A stretch of 64,000 nt of DNA, taken from Candidatus Binatia bacterium (lineage in GTDB: Bacteria > Desulfobacterota_B > Binatia > UBA9968 > JAJDTQ01). Location of the stretch: contig JAJDTQ010000096.1 in NCBI GenBank assembly GCA_022827045.1, positions 1-64,000 of the forward strand. The letters are read 5' to 3'. How positions within the stretch are numbered: the stretch's first letter is position 1; each line of letters begins with the position of its first letter. The notes under the pieces were generated by a model, which was given only the letters and a program-made list of their open reading frames with translations, searched no databases and was not told the DNA's origin. Shown piece by piece: positions 11,250 through 15,032 of the stretch. The position numbers and the translations under genes are program-made.

Positions 11250-11325
11250 TGGAGGCGGCGGGCGGATTCGAACCGCCGCATGGAGGTTTTGCAGACCTCT
11301 CCCTTAACCACTTGGGTACGCCGCC
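11250..11325 (-). tRNA. tRNA-Cys (anticodon GCA)
   Basis: On the minus strand the sequence folds into a complete cloverleaf: 7-bp acceptor stem GGCGGCG/CGCCGCC, a D arm, a 5-bp anticodon stem with loop CTGCAAA, a 5-base variable loop, a T arm with TTCGAAT, discriminator U and an encoded CCA. GCA anticodon and U73 both identify cysteine. 76 bases including CCA. It is convergent with the acyl-CoA synthetase gene. Confidence 0.97.
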
Positions 11326-11506
11326 CGAAAGAAGAGTTTTTGTAACATACCCGATCCTTGTATTTCAAGCCGCGCTCGGACGTTGAAGAAACTCGAAAAA
11401 TCAACTATTTTGACCTTCAACAGGTTGTAGGAACGGTGTATGTGCGGGGTTGCGAGGCCCGCGGCACGCTTCCAGACGGCCGGATTCGACTCAGGAGCTC
11501 TCTTCC

Positions 11507-12886
11507 ATGGCTACGATGATAACCGAGGAGTGCATCAACTGCGGCGCTTGCGAGCCGGAATGTCCCAACGAAGCCATCACCCAACAGGACGACCTGTACG
11601 TCATCGACCCGATCCTGTGCACCGAATGCGTCGGTTTCCACGACTACGAGGCCTGTGCGGCAGTCTGTCCGGTCGATTGCTGCGTGACGGATCCCAACAA
11701 CGTCGAGCCGGAAAGTGTGCTGATCGAACGGGCGCGGGAATTGCATACGGACGTCGACTTCGGCGATGAGTTCGAGTCGCGGTTCCGTAGCGGCGACGGC
11801 GCCACGGAATCGGCGGCCGCCCCCGCGGCGGCGGTAGCGGATGCGGCCAACGGAGCTGCGGAAGCGTCGGCGGAGGTGGCGGAAGCGCCCGCCGTGGCCG
11901 CTCCGGCCCCTGCCGCGGCTGCACCGGCGCCCGCGCCGGTGGCGGCGGCCAGTCCCGAGCCTGTGGAAGAGCCGGTGGAGGAACCCGAGCCACTGGAGCC
12001 CAAGGTCTTTCCGGGCCAGCTGCCCATGGGTTTCGACGAGTTGGCGCAACGCATCCAGACCAGTGAATCCAGCCTGCTGCGAGTCGCGGTACTCTTTCTG
12101 CAGCCGCTCCTCGGCGCGCTTCCCGCGACGTCGCGGGACGATCTGGGAGAGTTCGTGGGCCGGCCCTACTTCGTGGACGGCGCGGCCATCTCCCTCAACA
12201 TGATCCTCAACATGATCCTCTACCCGGTGGTGTTCATCGTCGCGGGGGTCGCGGTCGAAGGGCTGGGCCTGGCGTTCGGCAAGGGCGTCAACATGTACAT
12301 TCTGGTGGGTTTCCTCGTCGCGTTGGCGGAGGTGCTGTATCGCCTGCGCCATAGCGTCTTCCGTGCCGTCCCGGTGGAGCAGGTCACGGTAGACGCGGCG
12401 CTCTACGGCGTTCCGCTGGCGCTCGTGCTGCGGCCGTTGTTGTCGCATCGGGGCAAGCTGCTGCGGCGCATTCCGGTTCCCGTCGAGGGATTCTACGACG
12501 CGCGCTTCGTCGAGAAGGTGGAGCGCGAACGCCGCTACGGCCATGCCTACACGGTGGAGGACCTGGGGAGCGCATATCATCTTCGGCTGGAGTTCCCCAC
12601 CCAGGTGCCGCGTCTTGGCATCACCATCGCGCCGAGACTGCCCGAGCGCATGCCGGACTATGACTACGACCTGATGCTGAAGGAAGGCCAGTTGATCGTC
12701 AGGGGCAAGCTGCTGGATTCCCGCATCCGGCAGATATCATCGAGCATCGGCGCGTTTCCGCCGGAATTCACCACGGTCATCCCCTTGCAGGACCGTGTCT
12801 ACGGCTTCGCACACCATCTGAGCAGCAAGGTCCTGGACGTCCTTCTGCTGAAAGAGAGCGCCGCGAGGCTGGGTTGGATCGCCTAG
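11507..12886 (+). CDS. dicluster ferredoxin fused to a membrane segment and a C-terminal domain of unknown function
   Basis: A 459-residue protein of unusual build. Residues 1-70 are a YfhL-type 2[4Fe-4S] ferredoxin: C9-x2-C12-x2-C15-x3-C19-P and C38-x2-C41-x8-C50-x3-C54-P. Residues 98-170 are a low-complexity linker of Ala, Pro and Glu. Around residues 235-295 there are two hydrophobic helices that look transmembrane. Residues 360-440 form a soluble domain with the pattern YDYDLMLKEGQLIVRGKL and later GAFPPEFTTVIPL, which resembles the strand layout of an alpha-crystallin/HSP20 domain; this resemblance is my inference. YfhL ferredoxins are normally about 80-90 residues, so the rest is an addition. 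An AGGAG nine bases before the ATG fixes the start; an upstream in-frame start lacks one. rimI follows. Confidence 0.8.
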   Translation: MATMITEECINCGACEPECPNEAITQQDDLYVIDPILCTECVGFHDYEACAAVCPVDCCVTDPNNVEPESVLIERARELHTDVDFGDEFESRFRSGDGATESAAAPAAAVADAANGAAEASAEVAEAPAVAAPAPAAAAPAPAPVAAASPEPVEEPVEEPEPLEPKVFPGQLPMGFDELAQRIQTSESSLLRVAVLFLQPLLGALPATSRDDLGEFVGRPYFVDGAAISLNMILNMILYPVVFIVAGVAVEGLGLAFGKGVNMYILVGFLVALAEVLYRLRHSVFRAVPVEQVTVDAALYGVPLALVLRPLLSHRGKLLRRIPVPVEGFYDARFVEKVERERRYGHAYTVEDLGSAYHLRLEFPTQVPRLGITIAPRLPERMPDYDYDLMLKEGQLIVRGKLLDSRIRQISSSIGAFPPEFTTVIPLQDRVYGFAHHLSSKVLDVLLLKESAARLGWIA

Positions 12887-12942: not shown

Positions 12943-13431
12943 ATGTCCGTACAGGCCGGCGGAGGGCTCTACCTCCGGAGCATGACGGTCGCCGACATCG
13001 ACGAGGTGATGGCGATCGAGAAGGCGGCGTTCGCCAGTCCCTGGAGCCGGCAGTTCTTTCTCGAGGAGTTGCAGGCGACGCATGCCAGATCCGTCCTGTG
13101 CCAGCGGGACGGGAAGCCCATCGGCTACGTGATCTACTGGGAGCTGCCCGGCGAGTTGGACATCCATAACGTCGCGGTGCATCCGCGGTTCCGGCGGCAG
13201 GGAGTCGCGCGCGCCATGCTCGCCGACATCATCGAGGGCGCGACGAAACGGGGTTTCCGGCGCATGACGCTCGAAGTCCGCAAGTCCAACGATCCGGCGC
13301 AGACCCTGTATCGTTCGCTCGGTTTCGAGATCTGCGGCCTGCGCAGGGGCTACTACTCCGACAACGGAGAGGACGCCTGGGTCATGGAGCGCAAGCTCGC
13401 ACCGTCTCCCAACGAGCCCCTACAAAGTTAA
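12943..13431 (+). CDS. rimI: ribosomal protein S18-alanine N-acetyltransferase (GNAT family)
   Basis: A 162-residue GNAT acetyltransferase. The start region LRSMTVADIDEVMAIE, the motif FASPWSRQFF, the acetyl-CoA loop VHPRFRRQGVARAML (R/Q-x-x-G-x-G/A type) and the C-terminal LYRSLGFEICGLRRGYYSDNGEDAWVMER all match RimI, including the late Glu/Tyr segment that distinguishes it from other GNATs. RimI acetylates the N-terminus of ribosomal protein S18. In many genomes it lies near tsaB/tsaD; tsaD is 8 kb away here. The ATG at 12943 fits the family length; an upstream TTG overlapping the preceding stop codon is the alternative. The stop is followed by a 60-base AT-rich stretch. Confidence 0.88.
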   Translation: MSVQAGGGLYLRSMTVADIDEVMAIEKAAFASPWSRQFFLEELQATHARSVLCQRDGKPIGYVIYWELPGELDIHNVAVHPRFRRQGVARAMLADIIEGATKRGFRRMTLEVRKSNDPAQTLYRSLGFEICGLRRGYYSDNGEDAWVMERKLAPSPNEPLQS

Positions 13432-13543: not shown

Positions 13544-13662
13544 TATGAAAGAGACCGTCATTGAAACGCGCATCTCTAATCCTGGCCCTTTTCGCTGCAG
13601 TCACCTTCCTCCGGCTTAGCCGGGCGATATCCCGTTACCCCTCTTCCGTGCACGGTTTTTGA
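13544..13662 (+). other. carD leader with two overlapping short ORFs
   Basis: The leader holds an ATG-started 24-codon ORF (13544-13618) and, in another frame, a TTG-started 33-codon ORF (13561-13662) whose first 22 residues look like a signal peptide: two basic residues followed by a hydrophobic run. Neither has a good ribosome binding site. They may be an upstream control peptide, a gene remnant or chance; I cannot decide between these. Confidence 0.25.
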
Positions 13663-13679
13663 CGTTCAAGGAGGAAAGA

Positions 13680-14165
13680 ATGTTCAAGGTCGGAGAGAAG
13701 GTTGTCTATCCTGCACATGGAGTCGGTGAGATCGAAGCGGTAAGAAGTCAGGTCATTTCCGGGACCGAGAAGAAGTTCTACATGCTGCGTATCCTCGATA
13801 CGGACATGAAGATCATGGTGCCCGTGGACAACGCCATGGCCGTGGGGCTCAGGAAGATCATCGACAAGACAACCGTCACGCGGGTCTACCGCATTCTCCG
13901 GGAAAAGAAGAAGGCGCCCATCGACCAGCAGACATGGAACCGCCGGTACCGGGAATACACCGAAAAGATCAAGACCGGCTCGGTCATCGAGATTGCCGCC
14001 GTGCTCAGGGACCTGTTCCTGCTGAAGGGTGACAAGGAGCTTTCCTTTGGTGAACGAAAGGTGTTGGATACGGCCCGGAACCTGCTGGTCAAGGAGCTTT
14101 CCATCGCCCGGTCCCATACCGAGGAGAAGATCATGGAGGAGCTGAGCCACATCTTCACCCAGTAG
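13680..14165 (+). CDS. carD: CarD/CdnL-family RNA polymerase-binding transcription regulator
   Basis: A 161-residue CarD/CdnL protein. The N-terminal RNAP-interacting domain (residues 1-60, FKVGEKVVYPAHGVGEI) has the Tudor-like fold that binds the beta subunit lobe, and the C-terminal helical domain (about 65-160) contains the expected Trp (W84 region, QQTWNRRYREY) that contacts the promoter minor groove. These proteins stabilise open complexes, often at rRNA promoters. AAGGAGG at 13669-13675 sets the start at 13680. It has its own strong promoter and a strong terminator, so it is probably transcribed mainly as a single-gene unit at high level. Confidence 0.94.
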   Translation: MFKVGEKVVYPAHGVGEIEAVRSQVISGTEKKFYMLRILDTDMKIMVPVDNAMAVGLRKIIDKTTVTRVYRILREKKKAPIDQQTWNRRYREYTEKIKTGSVIEIAAVLRDLFLLKGDKELSFGERKVLDTARNLLVKELSIARSHTEEKIMEELSHIFTQ

Positions 14166-14189
14166 CGGGGACCTCGGATTTGTGGAGAA

Positions 14190-14227
14190 AGAGCTGAAGG
14201 GAATTCCTTCCTTCAGCTCTTTTTTTT
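14190..14227 (+). terminator. strong intrinsic terminator after carD
   Basis: A 10-bp perfect stem, GAGCTGAAGG (14191-14200) with CCTTCAGCTC (14210-14219), encloses a 9-base loop and runs directly into eight T residues (14220-14227). It lies only 14 bases before the ispD start codon, so any ispD transcript coming from carD must read through it. Confidence 0.92.
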
Positions 14228-14241
14228 CGCGGGAGGGTTTC

Positions 14242-14931
14242 GTGCGAGCCAACGCCATCATCCTGGCCGCCGGCCGCGGGACGAGAATGGGAGGGCGCGG
14301 ATCGAAGGTCCTCTTGCCGGTGGCCGGGCGGCCGTTGATCCTGCACACGCTCGATCGTTTCGGAAGCTCGCGTGAGGTGGGCCGGGCAGTCCTCGTGGTG
14401 CCGCCCGGAGACGTGCGGACATATGAAGCTCTCCTGAAGGGATCGCCGGTTGAAGGACTGGAGGTGGGCGTTCGGCCGGGAGGCGCCCGCCGGCAGGATT
14501 CCGTGCGCGCCGGGCTGGAAGCGCTGGACCCCGATTGCGAGTGCGTGATCGTCCATGATGGCGCGCGCCCTTTCGCCGCGGCCGACCTGATCGATCGCTG
14601 CGTGCGGGAGTCCCGGGGGGACCGTTCGGTGACCGTGGCGGTGCCGGCGCGCAACACCATCAAGACGGTGTCTGACGGACAAGTAATGGAGACGCTGCCC
14701 CGGAGCCGGCTGTGGGAGATACAGACCCCTCAAGCCTTTCCGGTGCGCACGCTGCGGGAAGCGTACGCGTCGGCGGAAAGGGAAGGCGTGGAGGCGACGG
14801 ACGACGCCATGCTCGTGGAGCGCCTGGGAGCGCCGGTATGGGTCGTGGACGGCAGCACCGTCAACCTCAAGGTGACCTATCCGGAGGATATCCTGTTCGC
14901 GGAAGCGCTGGTTGCCGGAGGGGTGGTTTGA
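14242..14931 (+). CDS. ispD: 2-C-methyl-D-erythritol 4-phosphate cytidylyltransferase
   Basis: A 229-residue nucleotidyltransferase of the MEP isoprenoid pathway, converting MEP and CTP to CDP-ME. Motifs are the nucleotide-binding ILAAGRGTRMGG at residues 7-18, a catalytic Lys in SKVLLPVAGRP, VHDGARPF near residue 110, and IQTPQAF near residue 165. GGAGG at 14232-14236 supports the GTG at 14242; a longer in-frame ORF starting at 14182 would translate through the carD terminator and is unlikely. ispF is not adjacent. A tRNA-Glu on the opposite strand follows closely. Confidence 0.93.
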   Translation: MRANAIILAAGRGTRMGGRGSKVLLPVAGRPLILHTLDRFGSSREVGRAVLVVPPGDVRTYEALLKGSPVEGLEVGVRPGGARRQDSVRAGLEALDPDCECVIVHDGARPFAAADLIDRCVRESRGDRSVTVAVPARNTIKTVSDGQVMETLPRSRLWEIQTPQAFPVRTLREAYASAEREGVEATDDAMLVERLGAPVWVVDGSTVNLKVTYPEDILFAEALVAGGVV

Positions 14932-14954: not shown

Positions 14955-15032
14955 TGGCGTCCCCGACGGGATTTGAACCCGTGTTGCCGGCGTGAAAGGC
15001 CGGTGTCCTGGGCCAGGCTAGACGACGGGGAC
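14955..15032 (-). tRNA. tRNA-Glu (anticodon TTC)
   Basis: On the minus strand: acceptor stem GTCCCCG/CGGGGAC, D arm with a 2-base-longer loop than the E. coli tRNA, anticodon loop CTTTCAC (anticodon TTC, codons GAA/GAG), 4-base variable loop, T arm with TTCAAAT, discriminator G and encoded CCA. 78 bases including CCA. It is convergent with ispD and lies downstream of cysK. Confidence 0.97.

What the first reader, a model, noticed from the sequence alone, without database searches (positions are those of the whole stretch)
11507..12886. A dicluster ferredoxin fused through an Ala/Pro linker to a membrane segment and an HSP20-like domain
The first 70 residues are an intact YfhL-type 2[4Fe-4S] ferredoxin with all eight Cys. 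The remaining 390 residues hold a long low-complexity linker, two probable membrane helices and a C-terminal beta-rich domain with an alpha-crystallin-like strand pattern. I know of no characterised protein with this order. It could tether an electron carrier to the membrane or couple redox state to protein folding. It is the best candidate in the window for an undescribed system.
Basis: partly seen in the sequence, partly recalled or inferred. Interest (0 to 1): 0.72.

Follow-up and report, generated by a model that had tools for sequence, protein, structure and literature searches.

The report
Membrane-tethered ferredoxin with chaperone-like domain
One protein carries a strong-reductant iron-sulfur electron carrier on a flexible arm, a predicted membrane hairpin and a small-heat-shock-like domain; it is widespread in one class of uncultured bacteria and probably delivers electrons at the inner membrane, but its partner is unknown.

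Summary
Window 11507-12886 (+) is one intact 459-aa gene: YfhL/Alvin-type 2[4Fe-4S] ferredoxin, Ala/Pro linker, predicted two-helix membrane hairpin, alpha-crystallin-like domain (ACD). The ACD rests on a confident model whose 50 listed PDB matches are all small heat-shock or CS domains, and on a profile match to HSP20 (95%; best of 200 shuffles 5.2%). It is no frameshift or assembly fusion: a TM+ACD profile matches 107 of 148 genomes of the class (Binatia, by record titles), 94 over both parts, and none outside it among 297 genomes drawn from the phylum. Ferredoxin and ACD are under strong purifying selection. The ACD lacks sHSP hallmarks (IxI, GVL glycine, beta-6). Natural variants exist: ferredoxin+ACD without hairpin (2 read), ACD alone at the same locus (9 read). 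Best reading (0.5): a membrane-tethered very-low-potential ferredoxin that works like RnfB or cytochrome cy, with the ACD as docking module. Donor and acceptor are unknown. Leads: a second fusion (ferredoxin + zinc ribbon) in the same genomes, and a KAS III pair next to the gene in 27 of 33 genomes that have it.

The parts
11493..11497 (+). AGGAG, likely ribosome-binding site, nine bases before the ATG
   Evidence: sequence
11507..12886 (+). whole fusion gene, 459 aa plus stop
   Evidence: same order of domains in relatives
11507..11746 (+). residues 1-80: YfhL/Alvin-type 2[4Fe-4S] ferredoxin; Cys 9, 12, 15, 19, 38, 41, 50, 54 (taken as the ligands by recalled homology to A. vinosum ferredoxin) plus 58, 59
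   Evidence: NF033683 98.3 bits, cut-off 86; solved ferredoxins; Cys conservation
11789..12001 (+). residues 95-165: Ala/Pro-rich linker (45-139 aa in 63 rows, median 62)
   Evidence: low model confidence over most of it
12176..12259 (+). residues 224-251: predicted membrane helix 1
   Evidence: models; hydropathy and charge pattern
12287..12343 (+). residues 261-279: predicted membrane helix 2
   Evidence: models; hydropathy and charge pattern
12476..12871 (+). residues 324-455: alpha-crystallin-like domain (HSP20/CS fold)
   Evidence: model and fold search; profile comparison with HSP20
12500..12541 (+). residues 332-345: helix with the conserved motif ExKxERxRRYG
12943..13431 (+). next gene: RimI-like N-acetyltransferase; a RimI homologue lies nearby in 38 of 52 loci
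13659..14165 (+). CarD-like regulator, nearby in 36 of 52 loci
14182..14931 (+). IspD, nearby in 29 of 52 loci

Best explanation
It is a membrane-tethered electron carrier of the very-low-potential (Alvin/YfhL) ferredoxin type. SHOWN: an intact dicluster ferredoxin sequence, a long Ala/Pro arm, a conserved hydrophobic two-helix stretch and an HSP20-fold domain in one reading frame, widespread in the class Binatia, with selection on both ends. INFERRED: the two helices form a membrane hairpin with both protein ends in the cytoplasm (few charges between the helices, Lys/Arg on the flanks); the arm lets the ferredoxin domain swing between a soluble donor and an acceptor at the inner membrane, as cytochrome cy or the ferredoxin-like domain of RnfB do; the ACD, which lacks the features by which small heat-shock proteins assemble, is a docking module that holds a partner next to the carrier, as CS domains do in other proteins. 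Donor and acceptor are not identified.
For: Ferredoxin family above cut-off with the Alvin signature: eight residues between C41 and C50 and a C-terminal extension (signature from PMC2984482, sections 3 and 5). dN/dS against five same-genus relatives: ferredoxin 0.03-0.09, ACD 0.03-0.09, linker 0.11-0.29, membrane part 0.12-0.21, so both ends work. Linker length varies (45-139 aa, median 62 in 63 rows) while it stays rich in Ala and Pro, as for a flexible arm; in cyt cy the 69-residue linker is needed for fast transfer to the reaction centre and about 45 residues suffice for respiration (PMC7876108, passages); RnfB's ferredoxin-like domain is flexibly tethered to a membrane helix (PMC12174285, passages). 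Mean Lys+Arg per row: 3.0 in residues 200-224, 0.5 in the loop 252-261, 3.5 in 279-300. ACD: all 50 listed Foldseek hits are sHSP or CS, profile match 95%, but no IxI (0 of 70), Lys at the GVL glycine in all 70 rows, helix 405-414 instead of strand beta-6. A second fusion in the same genomes joins the same type of ferredoxin to another C-terminal module, and in one chromosome (OX638375.1) the two ferredoxin parts are 98% identical in DNA between unlike flanks, which fits one interchangeable carrier with two addresses.
Against: No donor or acceptor is named by gene context; the frequent neighbours (RimI, CarD, IspD, CysK, DegP) are not known ferredoxin users. Nine positional orthologues keep the ACD but have neither ferredoxin nor hairpin, so the ACD does something without the carrier. 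Two keep ferredoxin and ACD without a hairpin, so membrane anchoring is dispensable there. 41 of 148 class genomes gave no match at all, 25 of them among the 95 good ones, so it is not indispensable in the class. Membrane insertion and topology are predictions, and helix 2 is weakly hydrophobic in some rows. The ferredoxin part was modelled poorly (mean pLDDT about 40-62 over residues 1-70), so contacts between ferredoxin and ACD could not be judged; net charges do not suggest docking between them. Gene conversion is sporadic: by codon identity the own zinc-ribbon partner ranks first in only 6 of 19 genomes.
Confidence: 0.5

Rival explanations
1. A redox-controlled membrane chaperone: the ACD is an active holdase at the inner membrane and the ferredoxin clusters sense redox or iron state and switch it.
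For: Sequence and fold kinship of the ACD with HSP20; the ACD is the part kept in the reduced forms; DegP (and, by eye, an HtpX-like protease in 7 of 52 loci) lies in the wider neighbourhood.
Against: No IxI motif (0 of 70), Lys for Gly in the GVL motif, no beta-6 strand; PF00011 is hit by none of 25 members at E<=1; some lineages keep the ACD without the ferredoxin; Alvin ferredoxins are strong reductants rather than known sensors (inference). Separate ordinary HSP20 genes are present in 18 of 20 relatives.
Confidence: 0.2
2. A lipid- or acyl-chain-related redox protein that works with a pair of KAS III proteins (the first without its catalytic Cys in most), supplying electrons or a membrane scaffold for a product made by them.
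For: The first member (KASa) was found in 33 of 148 class genomes at E<=1e-50; in 27 of these it lies on the same contig as the fusion with 13-180 bases between the matches. In at least five loci the two reading frames overlap by 8 bases, stop codon not counted. In 12 pairs looked at, the first member has Ser for the catalytic Cys in 7, Cys in 3, not shown in 2, and none shows the PHxAN motif; the second shows QCSGF in 10 and PHQAN in 11 (one second member is cut by the contig end).
Against: None of the 33 genomes is of the window's family or its sister families f2 and f3 (the E limit makes 33 a lower bound: L161/L162 of f5 have a more distant KASa). Six of the 33 have KASa and no fusion match; in five the gene upstream is another one, in the sixth the contig ends. 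No redox step is known for KAS III.
Confidence: 0.15
3. The carrier serves as electron partner of a class 1 dihydroorotate dehydrogenase (PyrD1) that lacks its usual PyrK subunit.
For: PyrD1 lies in the same gene cluster in several lineages; 12 of the 19 genomes with PyrD1 over the cut-off, of 58 searched, have no PF10418 match.
Against: Dihydroorotate is too weak a reductant for an Alvin ferredoxin (recalled potentials); the nearest genome has PyrD2; PyrD1 genomes such as G036, G042, G412 and G413 are not among the 107 with a fusion match.
Confidence: 0.04
4. Two unrelated genes fused by a sequencing or assembly error.
For: None found.
Against: Same fusion in independent assemblies of many species, including chromosome-size contigs (OY282432.1, OX638375.1, OX638322.1); dN/dS well under 1 on all parts.
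Confidence: 0.01

Closest known systems
YfhL / Alvin-type very-low-potential 2[4Fe-4S] ferredoxin (A. vinosum Fd, P. aeruginosa Fdx1, E. coli YfhL)
   Same: N-terminal 77 residues: family model above cut-off, all ligand Cys, the insert between two ligands and the C-terminal extension
   Different: The solved ones are stand-alone proteins of about 80 aa; the published inventory was limited to proteins of at most 100 aa (PMC2984482, section 5), so fusions like this would have been left out
RnfB of the Rnf complex
   Same: Works like: ferredoxin-like Fe-S domain tethered flexibly to a membrane helix on the cytoplasmic side (PMC12174285, passages)
   Different: RnfB has one N-terminal helix and no ACD and belongs to an Rnf complex; here two helices C-terminal to the ferredoxin, and none of the ten neighbours scanned is an rnf gene
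Membrane-anchored cytochrome cy
   Same: Works like: electron carrier on a linker of 69 residues attached to a membrane anchor (PMC7876108, passages)
   Different: Haem protein on the outer side of the membrane, no ACD, no homology
Small heat-shock proteins (HSP20, alpha-crystallin)
   Same: Fold and remote sequence kinship of residues 324-455
   Different: No IxI tail, no GVL glycine, no beta-6 strand, not found by PF00011; part of a larger fusion
Ncb5or (CYB5R4): cytochrome b5 - CS domain - b5 reductase
   Different: Different redox cofactors, animal protein, no membrane hairpin in the domain list given there

Membership tests
YfhL / Alvin-type ferredoxin | Family model NF033683 above its cut-off | tested here: met
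   98.3 bits, cut-off 86
YfhL / Alvin-type ferredoxin | Eight ligand Cys | tested here: met
   All present; Cys in 62-64 of 70 rows at these positions, the rest gaps bar one Phe at C19
[quoted passage not shown]
   Eight residues between C41 and C50; helix 69-79 in the model at moderate confidence; definition from PMC2984482 sections 3 and 5
YfhL / Alvin-type ferredoxin | Very negative potentials (below -450 mV, one at -650 mV or less) | not testable with these tools
   Needs redox titration
Small heat-shock protein (HSP20) | Alpha-crystallin fold | tested here: met
Small heat-shock protein (HSP20) | Pfam PF00011 | tested here: not met
   0 of 25 members at E<=1
Small heat-shock protein (HSP20) | A-x-x-x-n-G-V-L motif (recalled) | tested here: not met
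   The Gly aligns with Lys441, invariant in 70 rows; Arg in one hairpin-less form, L162
Small heat-shock protein (HSP20) | C-terminal I-x-I motif (recalled) | tested here: not met
   0 of 70 rows after residue 449; some rows end at the tblastn match, and the up to 11 residues left off in the loci checked show none either
Small heat-shock protein (HSP20) | Beta-6 strand for strand-swapped dimers (recalled) | tested here: not met
   Helix 405-414 stands between strands 395-402 and 420-426 in the model; a model, not a structure
CS domain | CS-type fold without beta-6 | tested here: inconclusive
   CS domains are among the matches but rank below sHSPs; no sequence test made
RnfB | RnfB family model and Rnf operon | tested here: not met
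   TIGR01944 15.9 bits, cut-off 68.7; no rnf gene among the ten neighbours scanned

The most novel reading that the evidence does not exclude
One carrier, two addresses: Binatia built a class-specific electron-delivery system in which the same very-low-potential ferredoxin module is attached to two different address modules, a membrane hairpin plus a repurposed alpha-crystallin docking domain and a zinc ribbon plus coiled coil, and is now and then kept interchangeable by gene conversion; the membrane copy feeds a membrane or lipid pathway linked in several families to a KAS III pair.
Probability: 0.25. Interest if true: 0.72.

Novelty: new variant of a known kind. Interest (0 to 1): 0.52.

Why it matters
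Why so many bacteria keep a ferredoxin with such extreme potentials is an open question: it is essential in P. [quoted passage not shown] A lineage that has welded it to a membrane segment and a docking-like domain gives a handle: whatever binds the ACD or sits next to the hairpin is a candidate partner. It also shows an alpha-crystallin fold used without the sHSP assembly features, with natural deletion variants that separate carrier, anchor and ACD.

Tried and rejected
Assembly or frameshift fusion: rejected. Known C-terminal family: no Pfam or NCBIfam family at E<=1 for residues 179-459 of the window's protein; the 25-row alignment gave only scattered Pfam hits, best E 0.033, the most frequent (DUF6713) in 5 of 25 at best E 0.064, and no PDB sequence at E<=5. 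The BFVD search of the full model gave nothing at E<=0.001; its named top rows are mostly viral sHSPs.

Ferredoxin-ACD docking by charge: the ferredoxin is acidic (median net charge -13 in 63 rows) but the ACD is near neutral (median -1), so simple electrostatic docking is not suggested. Concerted evolution of the two ferredoxin parts as a rule: not supported; one clear conversion (L003/L057), one likely partial one (L014/L076), one weak sign (L017/L063, grouped by the tree), and the own zinc-ribbon partner ranks first in 6 of 19 genomes. Of the 19 loci that I labelled zinc-ribbon in those two calls, a later check finds the ribbon in 16; L072 and L073 are cut by a contig end and L075 stops at 152 aa without it. 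PyrD1/PyrK idea: followed and held unlikely. Papers, as search listings only: 'membrane-anchored ferredoxin', 'ferredoxin domain'+'alpha-crystallin domain' and Hsp20+ferredoxin+'domain fusion' gave 0 papers; Binatota+ferredoxin gave 3 and Binatia+ferredoxin 2, none opened; 'tethered ferredoxin' gave 2, both on RNF/NQR by title or abstract, one read as passages. The Binatota genome paper PMC8262859 has no occurrence of ferredoxin, heat shock or Hsp20 in its main text (find); its supplements were not seen. The library holds open-licence papers only, so 'not in print' is not shown.

Full report
WHAT WAS CHECKED. The ORF 11507-12886 on the + strand reads without interruption from ATG to stop, 459 aa, behind an AGGAG at 11493-11497. 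A TTG 57 bases upstream extends the frame, but most full-length relatives start at MATMIT, so the ATG is the likely start. Residues 1-77 match the YfhL ferredoxin model NF033683 at 98.3 bits, cut-off 86, and solved ferredoxins such as 1blu and 2fgo at E about 1e-23. The C-terminal 281 residues match no Pfam or NCBIfam family at E<=1.

IS THE FUSION REAL? A search with residues 175-459 gave 896 proteins at E<=1 among 7997 scored; 106 of the 120 listed carry PF00037 as well; of the other 14, 13 are shorter than 420 aa. A scan of one genome per GTDB species gave 215 pattern matches, 159 of which encode a relative; 79 distinct loci were returned. Of these, 52 hold the ACD part (L001-L050, L059, L060) and 27 the ferredoxin part only (the second fusion, or genes cut by contig ends). 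Many record titles say Candidatus Binatia, Binatota or Deltaproteobacteria. Odd titles (Klebsiella, Syntrophobacter, Alphaproteobacteria, Desulfurellaceae) look like labels: the coordinates of L040, L019, L037 and L029 fit genomes that the tool places in the class (G052, G018, G420, G058). The window's own assembly is not held; the nearest genome shares 29% of its 31-letter words and by coordinates is the source of L001. A survey with a TM+ACD alignment matched 10 of 297 genomes drawn from the phylum, all ten in the same class, and 107 of 148 genomes of the class, 70 of 95 among the good ones. Of the 107, 94 match over TM and ACD, 82 of them in an open frame of at least 440 aa; in the other 12 the frame is shorter and I did not check why (contig ends are likely); 13 match in the ACD half only or in two pieces. 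The 58 of 58 counts ferredoxin-only matches too and is not a count of fusions. Against five relatives of the genus, dN/dS was 0.03-0.09 for the ferredoxin, 0.11-0.29 for the linker, 0.12-0.21 for the membrane part and 0.03-0.09 for the ACD; some dS values are above 1 and rough. So both ends are under strong constraint in one polypeptide.

ANATOMY. In the 70-row alignment the ten Cys are kept. The linker runs from 45 to 139 residues, median 62, 32% Ala and 22% Pro over 63 rows. The model of residues 168-459 has mean pLDDT 85.7: short helices, a long helix 224-251, a second one 261-279, another at about 301-314, then helix 332-343 and a beta sandwich. Lys+Arg average 3.0 in residues 200-224, 0.5 in the loop 252-261 and 3.5 in 279-300, which by the positive-inside rule would put both ends in the cytoplasm. 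Helix 2 is weakly hydrophobic in some rows (lowest mean 0.13), and the window's hydropathy peak alone is not beyond chance (112 of 1000 shuffles). The full-length model leaves ferredoxin and linker at low confidence, so no statement is made on contacts between the domains.

NATURAL DELETIONS. Thirteen genomes matched only in the ACD half or in two pieces; all thirteen regions were fetched. One is a full fusion with a deletion (L160), one is cut by a contig end (L151), two are ferredoxin+linker+ACD without hairpin (L161, L162), and nine are ACD without ferredoxin and without hairpin (L150, L152-L159). In ten of these eleven the highest 19-residue hydropathy before the ACD is 0.02-1.34; in L162 it is 1.67 within 110 residues that include the Ala-rich linker. 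All nine ACD-only forms lie in family f11 and sit before RimI and CarD, so they are positional orthologues. On an ACD tree of 47 rows the nine need two changes and lie together with four full fusions of the same family, so the full fusion is most likely ancestral, with loss and perhaps regain. That the ACD persists alone weakens any reading in which it is a mere appendix.

NEIGHBOURS. Around the fusion in 52 loci a RimI homologue is found in 38, CarD in 36, IspD in 29, CysK (reverse strand) in 29 and DUF1844 in 26 (many contigs are short, so these are lower bounds); the window shows the same order. In 12 of the 52 a pair of KAS III genes follows. In these 12 the first member has Ser for the catalytic Cys in 7, Cys in 3 and was not shown in 2; none shows the PHxAN motif; the second shows QCSGF in 10 and PHQAN in 11. 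The first member was found in 33 of 148 class genomes at E<=1e-50, and in 27 of these it lies 13-180 bases from the fusion match on the same contig; in five of the other six another gene stands upstream and in the sixth the contig ends. None of the 33 is of the window's family. This is the best functional lead, but it cannot explain the protein in the window's lineage.

A SECOND FUSION. Of the 27 ferredoxin-only loci, 21 show after an Ala/Pro linker a CxxC...CPxC zinc-ribbon-like domain, and the 11 read in full continue into a charged coiled coil; none of the three tested matches a Pfam family in that part above its cut-off. Five of the other six are cut by contig ends; two of these (L053, L054) are by their neighbours the first fusion. 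In chromosome OX638375.1 the ferredoxin parts of the two fusions are 98% identical over 240 bases, with 10-33% identity upstream and 40-67% downstream, a gene-conversion tract. L014/L076 shows a shorter one and L017/L063 a weak sign; I see none in the other 16 of 19 pairs.

HOW IT MOST LIKELY WORKS, AND HOW SURE. The simplest reading is a tethered electron carrier: Alvin ferredoxins have very negative potentials (PMC2984482, sections 3 and 5 read), the arm is about as long as that of cytochrome cy (PMC7876108, passages), and RnfB is a precedent for a ferredoxin-like domain flexibly tethered to a membrane helix (PMC12174285, passages). The ACD is then the docking part, as CS domains commonly are (PMC9706631, passages on Ncb5or). 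Shown: the parts, their conservation, their separability. Inferred: insertion, topology, swinging, docking. Unknown: donor, acceptor. I put 0.5 on this, 0.2 on a redox-controlled membrane chaperone, 0.15 on a lipid role with the KAS pair.

NOVELTY. The modules are known; the order, the membrane hairpin and the class-wide spread are not described in the papers I could search (an open-licence library only, mostly seen as listings). I rate it a new variant of a known kind.

Noticed in passing
L051, L052, L056-L058, L061-L071, L074, L076-L079: Second fusion in the same genomes: YfhL ferredoxin + Ala/Pro linker + CxxC..CPxC zinc-ribbon-like domain (21 of 27 ferredoxin-only loci), with a charged coiled coil and a tail like YDAPGKP in the 11 read. 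In L051, L055, L057, L064 and L065 a ferredoxin gene of this kind lies behind a homologue of the window's molybdopterin-binding subunit at 151-2385 (L055 is cut before the ribbon).
   Followed up: partly
L003:10001-10270 and L057:10001-10270 (same chromosome, OX638375.1): Gene-conversion tract: the ferredoxin parts of the two fusion genes are 98% identical in DNA between unlike flanks.
   Followed up: yes
L031, L032, L037-L041, L044-L046, L049, L060 behind the fusion gene: KAS III pair, the first with Ser for the catalytic Cys in 7 of 12, the second intact where readable; resembles PqsB/PqsC in layout (recalled). Reading frames overlap the fusion gene by 8 bases in at least five loci.
   Followed up: partly
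L150, L152-L159: Orthologues reduced to the ACD alone at the same locus in one family (Binataceae by names of close hits); a search found 323 short ACD proteins at E<=1, some of which will be gene ends on short contigs.
   Followed up: yes
class survey, 58 genomes: Dihydroorotate dehydrogenase type is exclusive: PyrD1 over cut-off in 19, PyrD2 over cut-off in 34, both in none; 12 of the 19 PyrD1 genomes have no PyrK-type Fe-S domain match. PyrD1 often sits in this gene cluster.
   Followed up: partly
L040, L019, L037, L029: Public MAG titles Klebsiella pneumoniae, Syntrophobacter, Alphaproteobacteria and Desulfurellaceae on contigs that carry the Binatia fusion gene and fit genomes placed in the class.
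   Followed up: partly
window 11250-11325 (-) and 14955-15032 (-): tRNA-Cys just upstream of the fusion gene and tRNA-Glu between IspD and CysK, both on the reverse strand.
   Followed up: no
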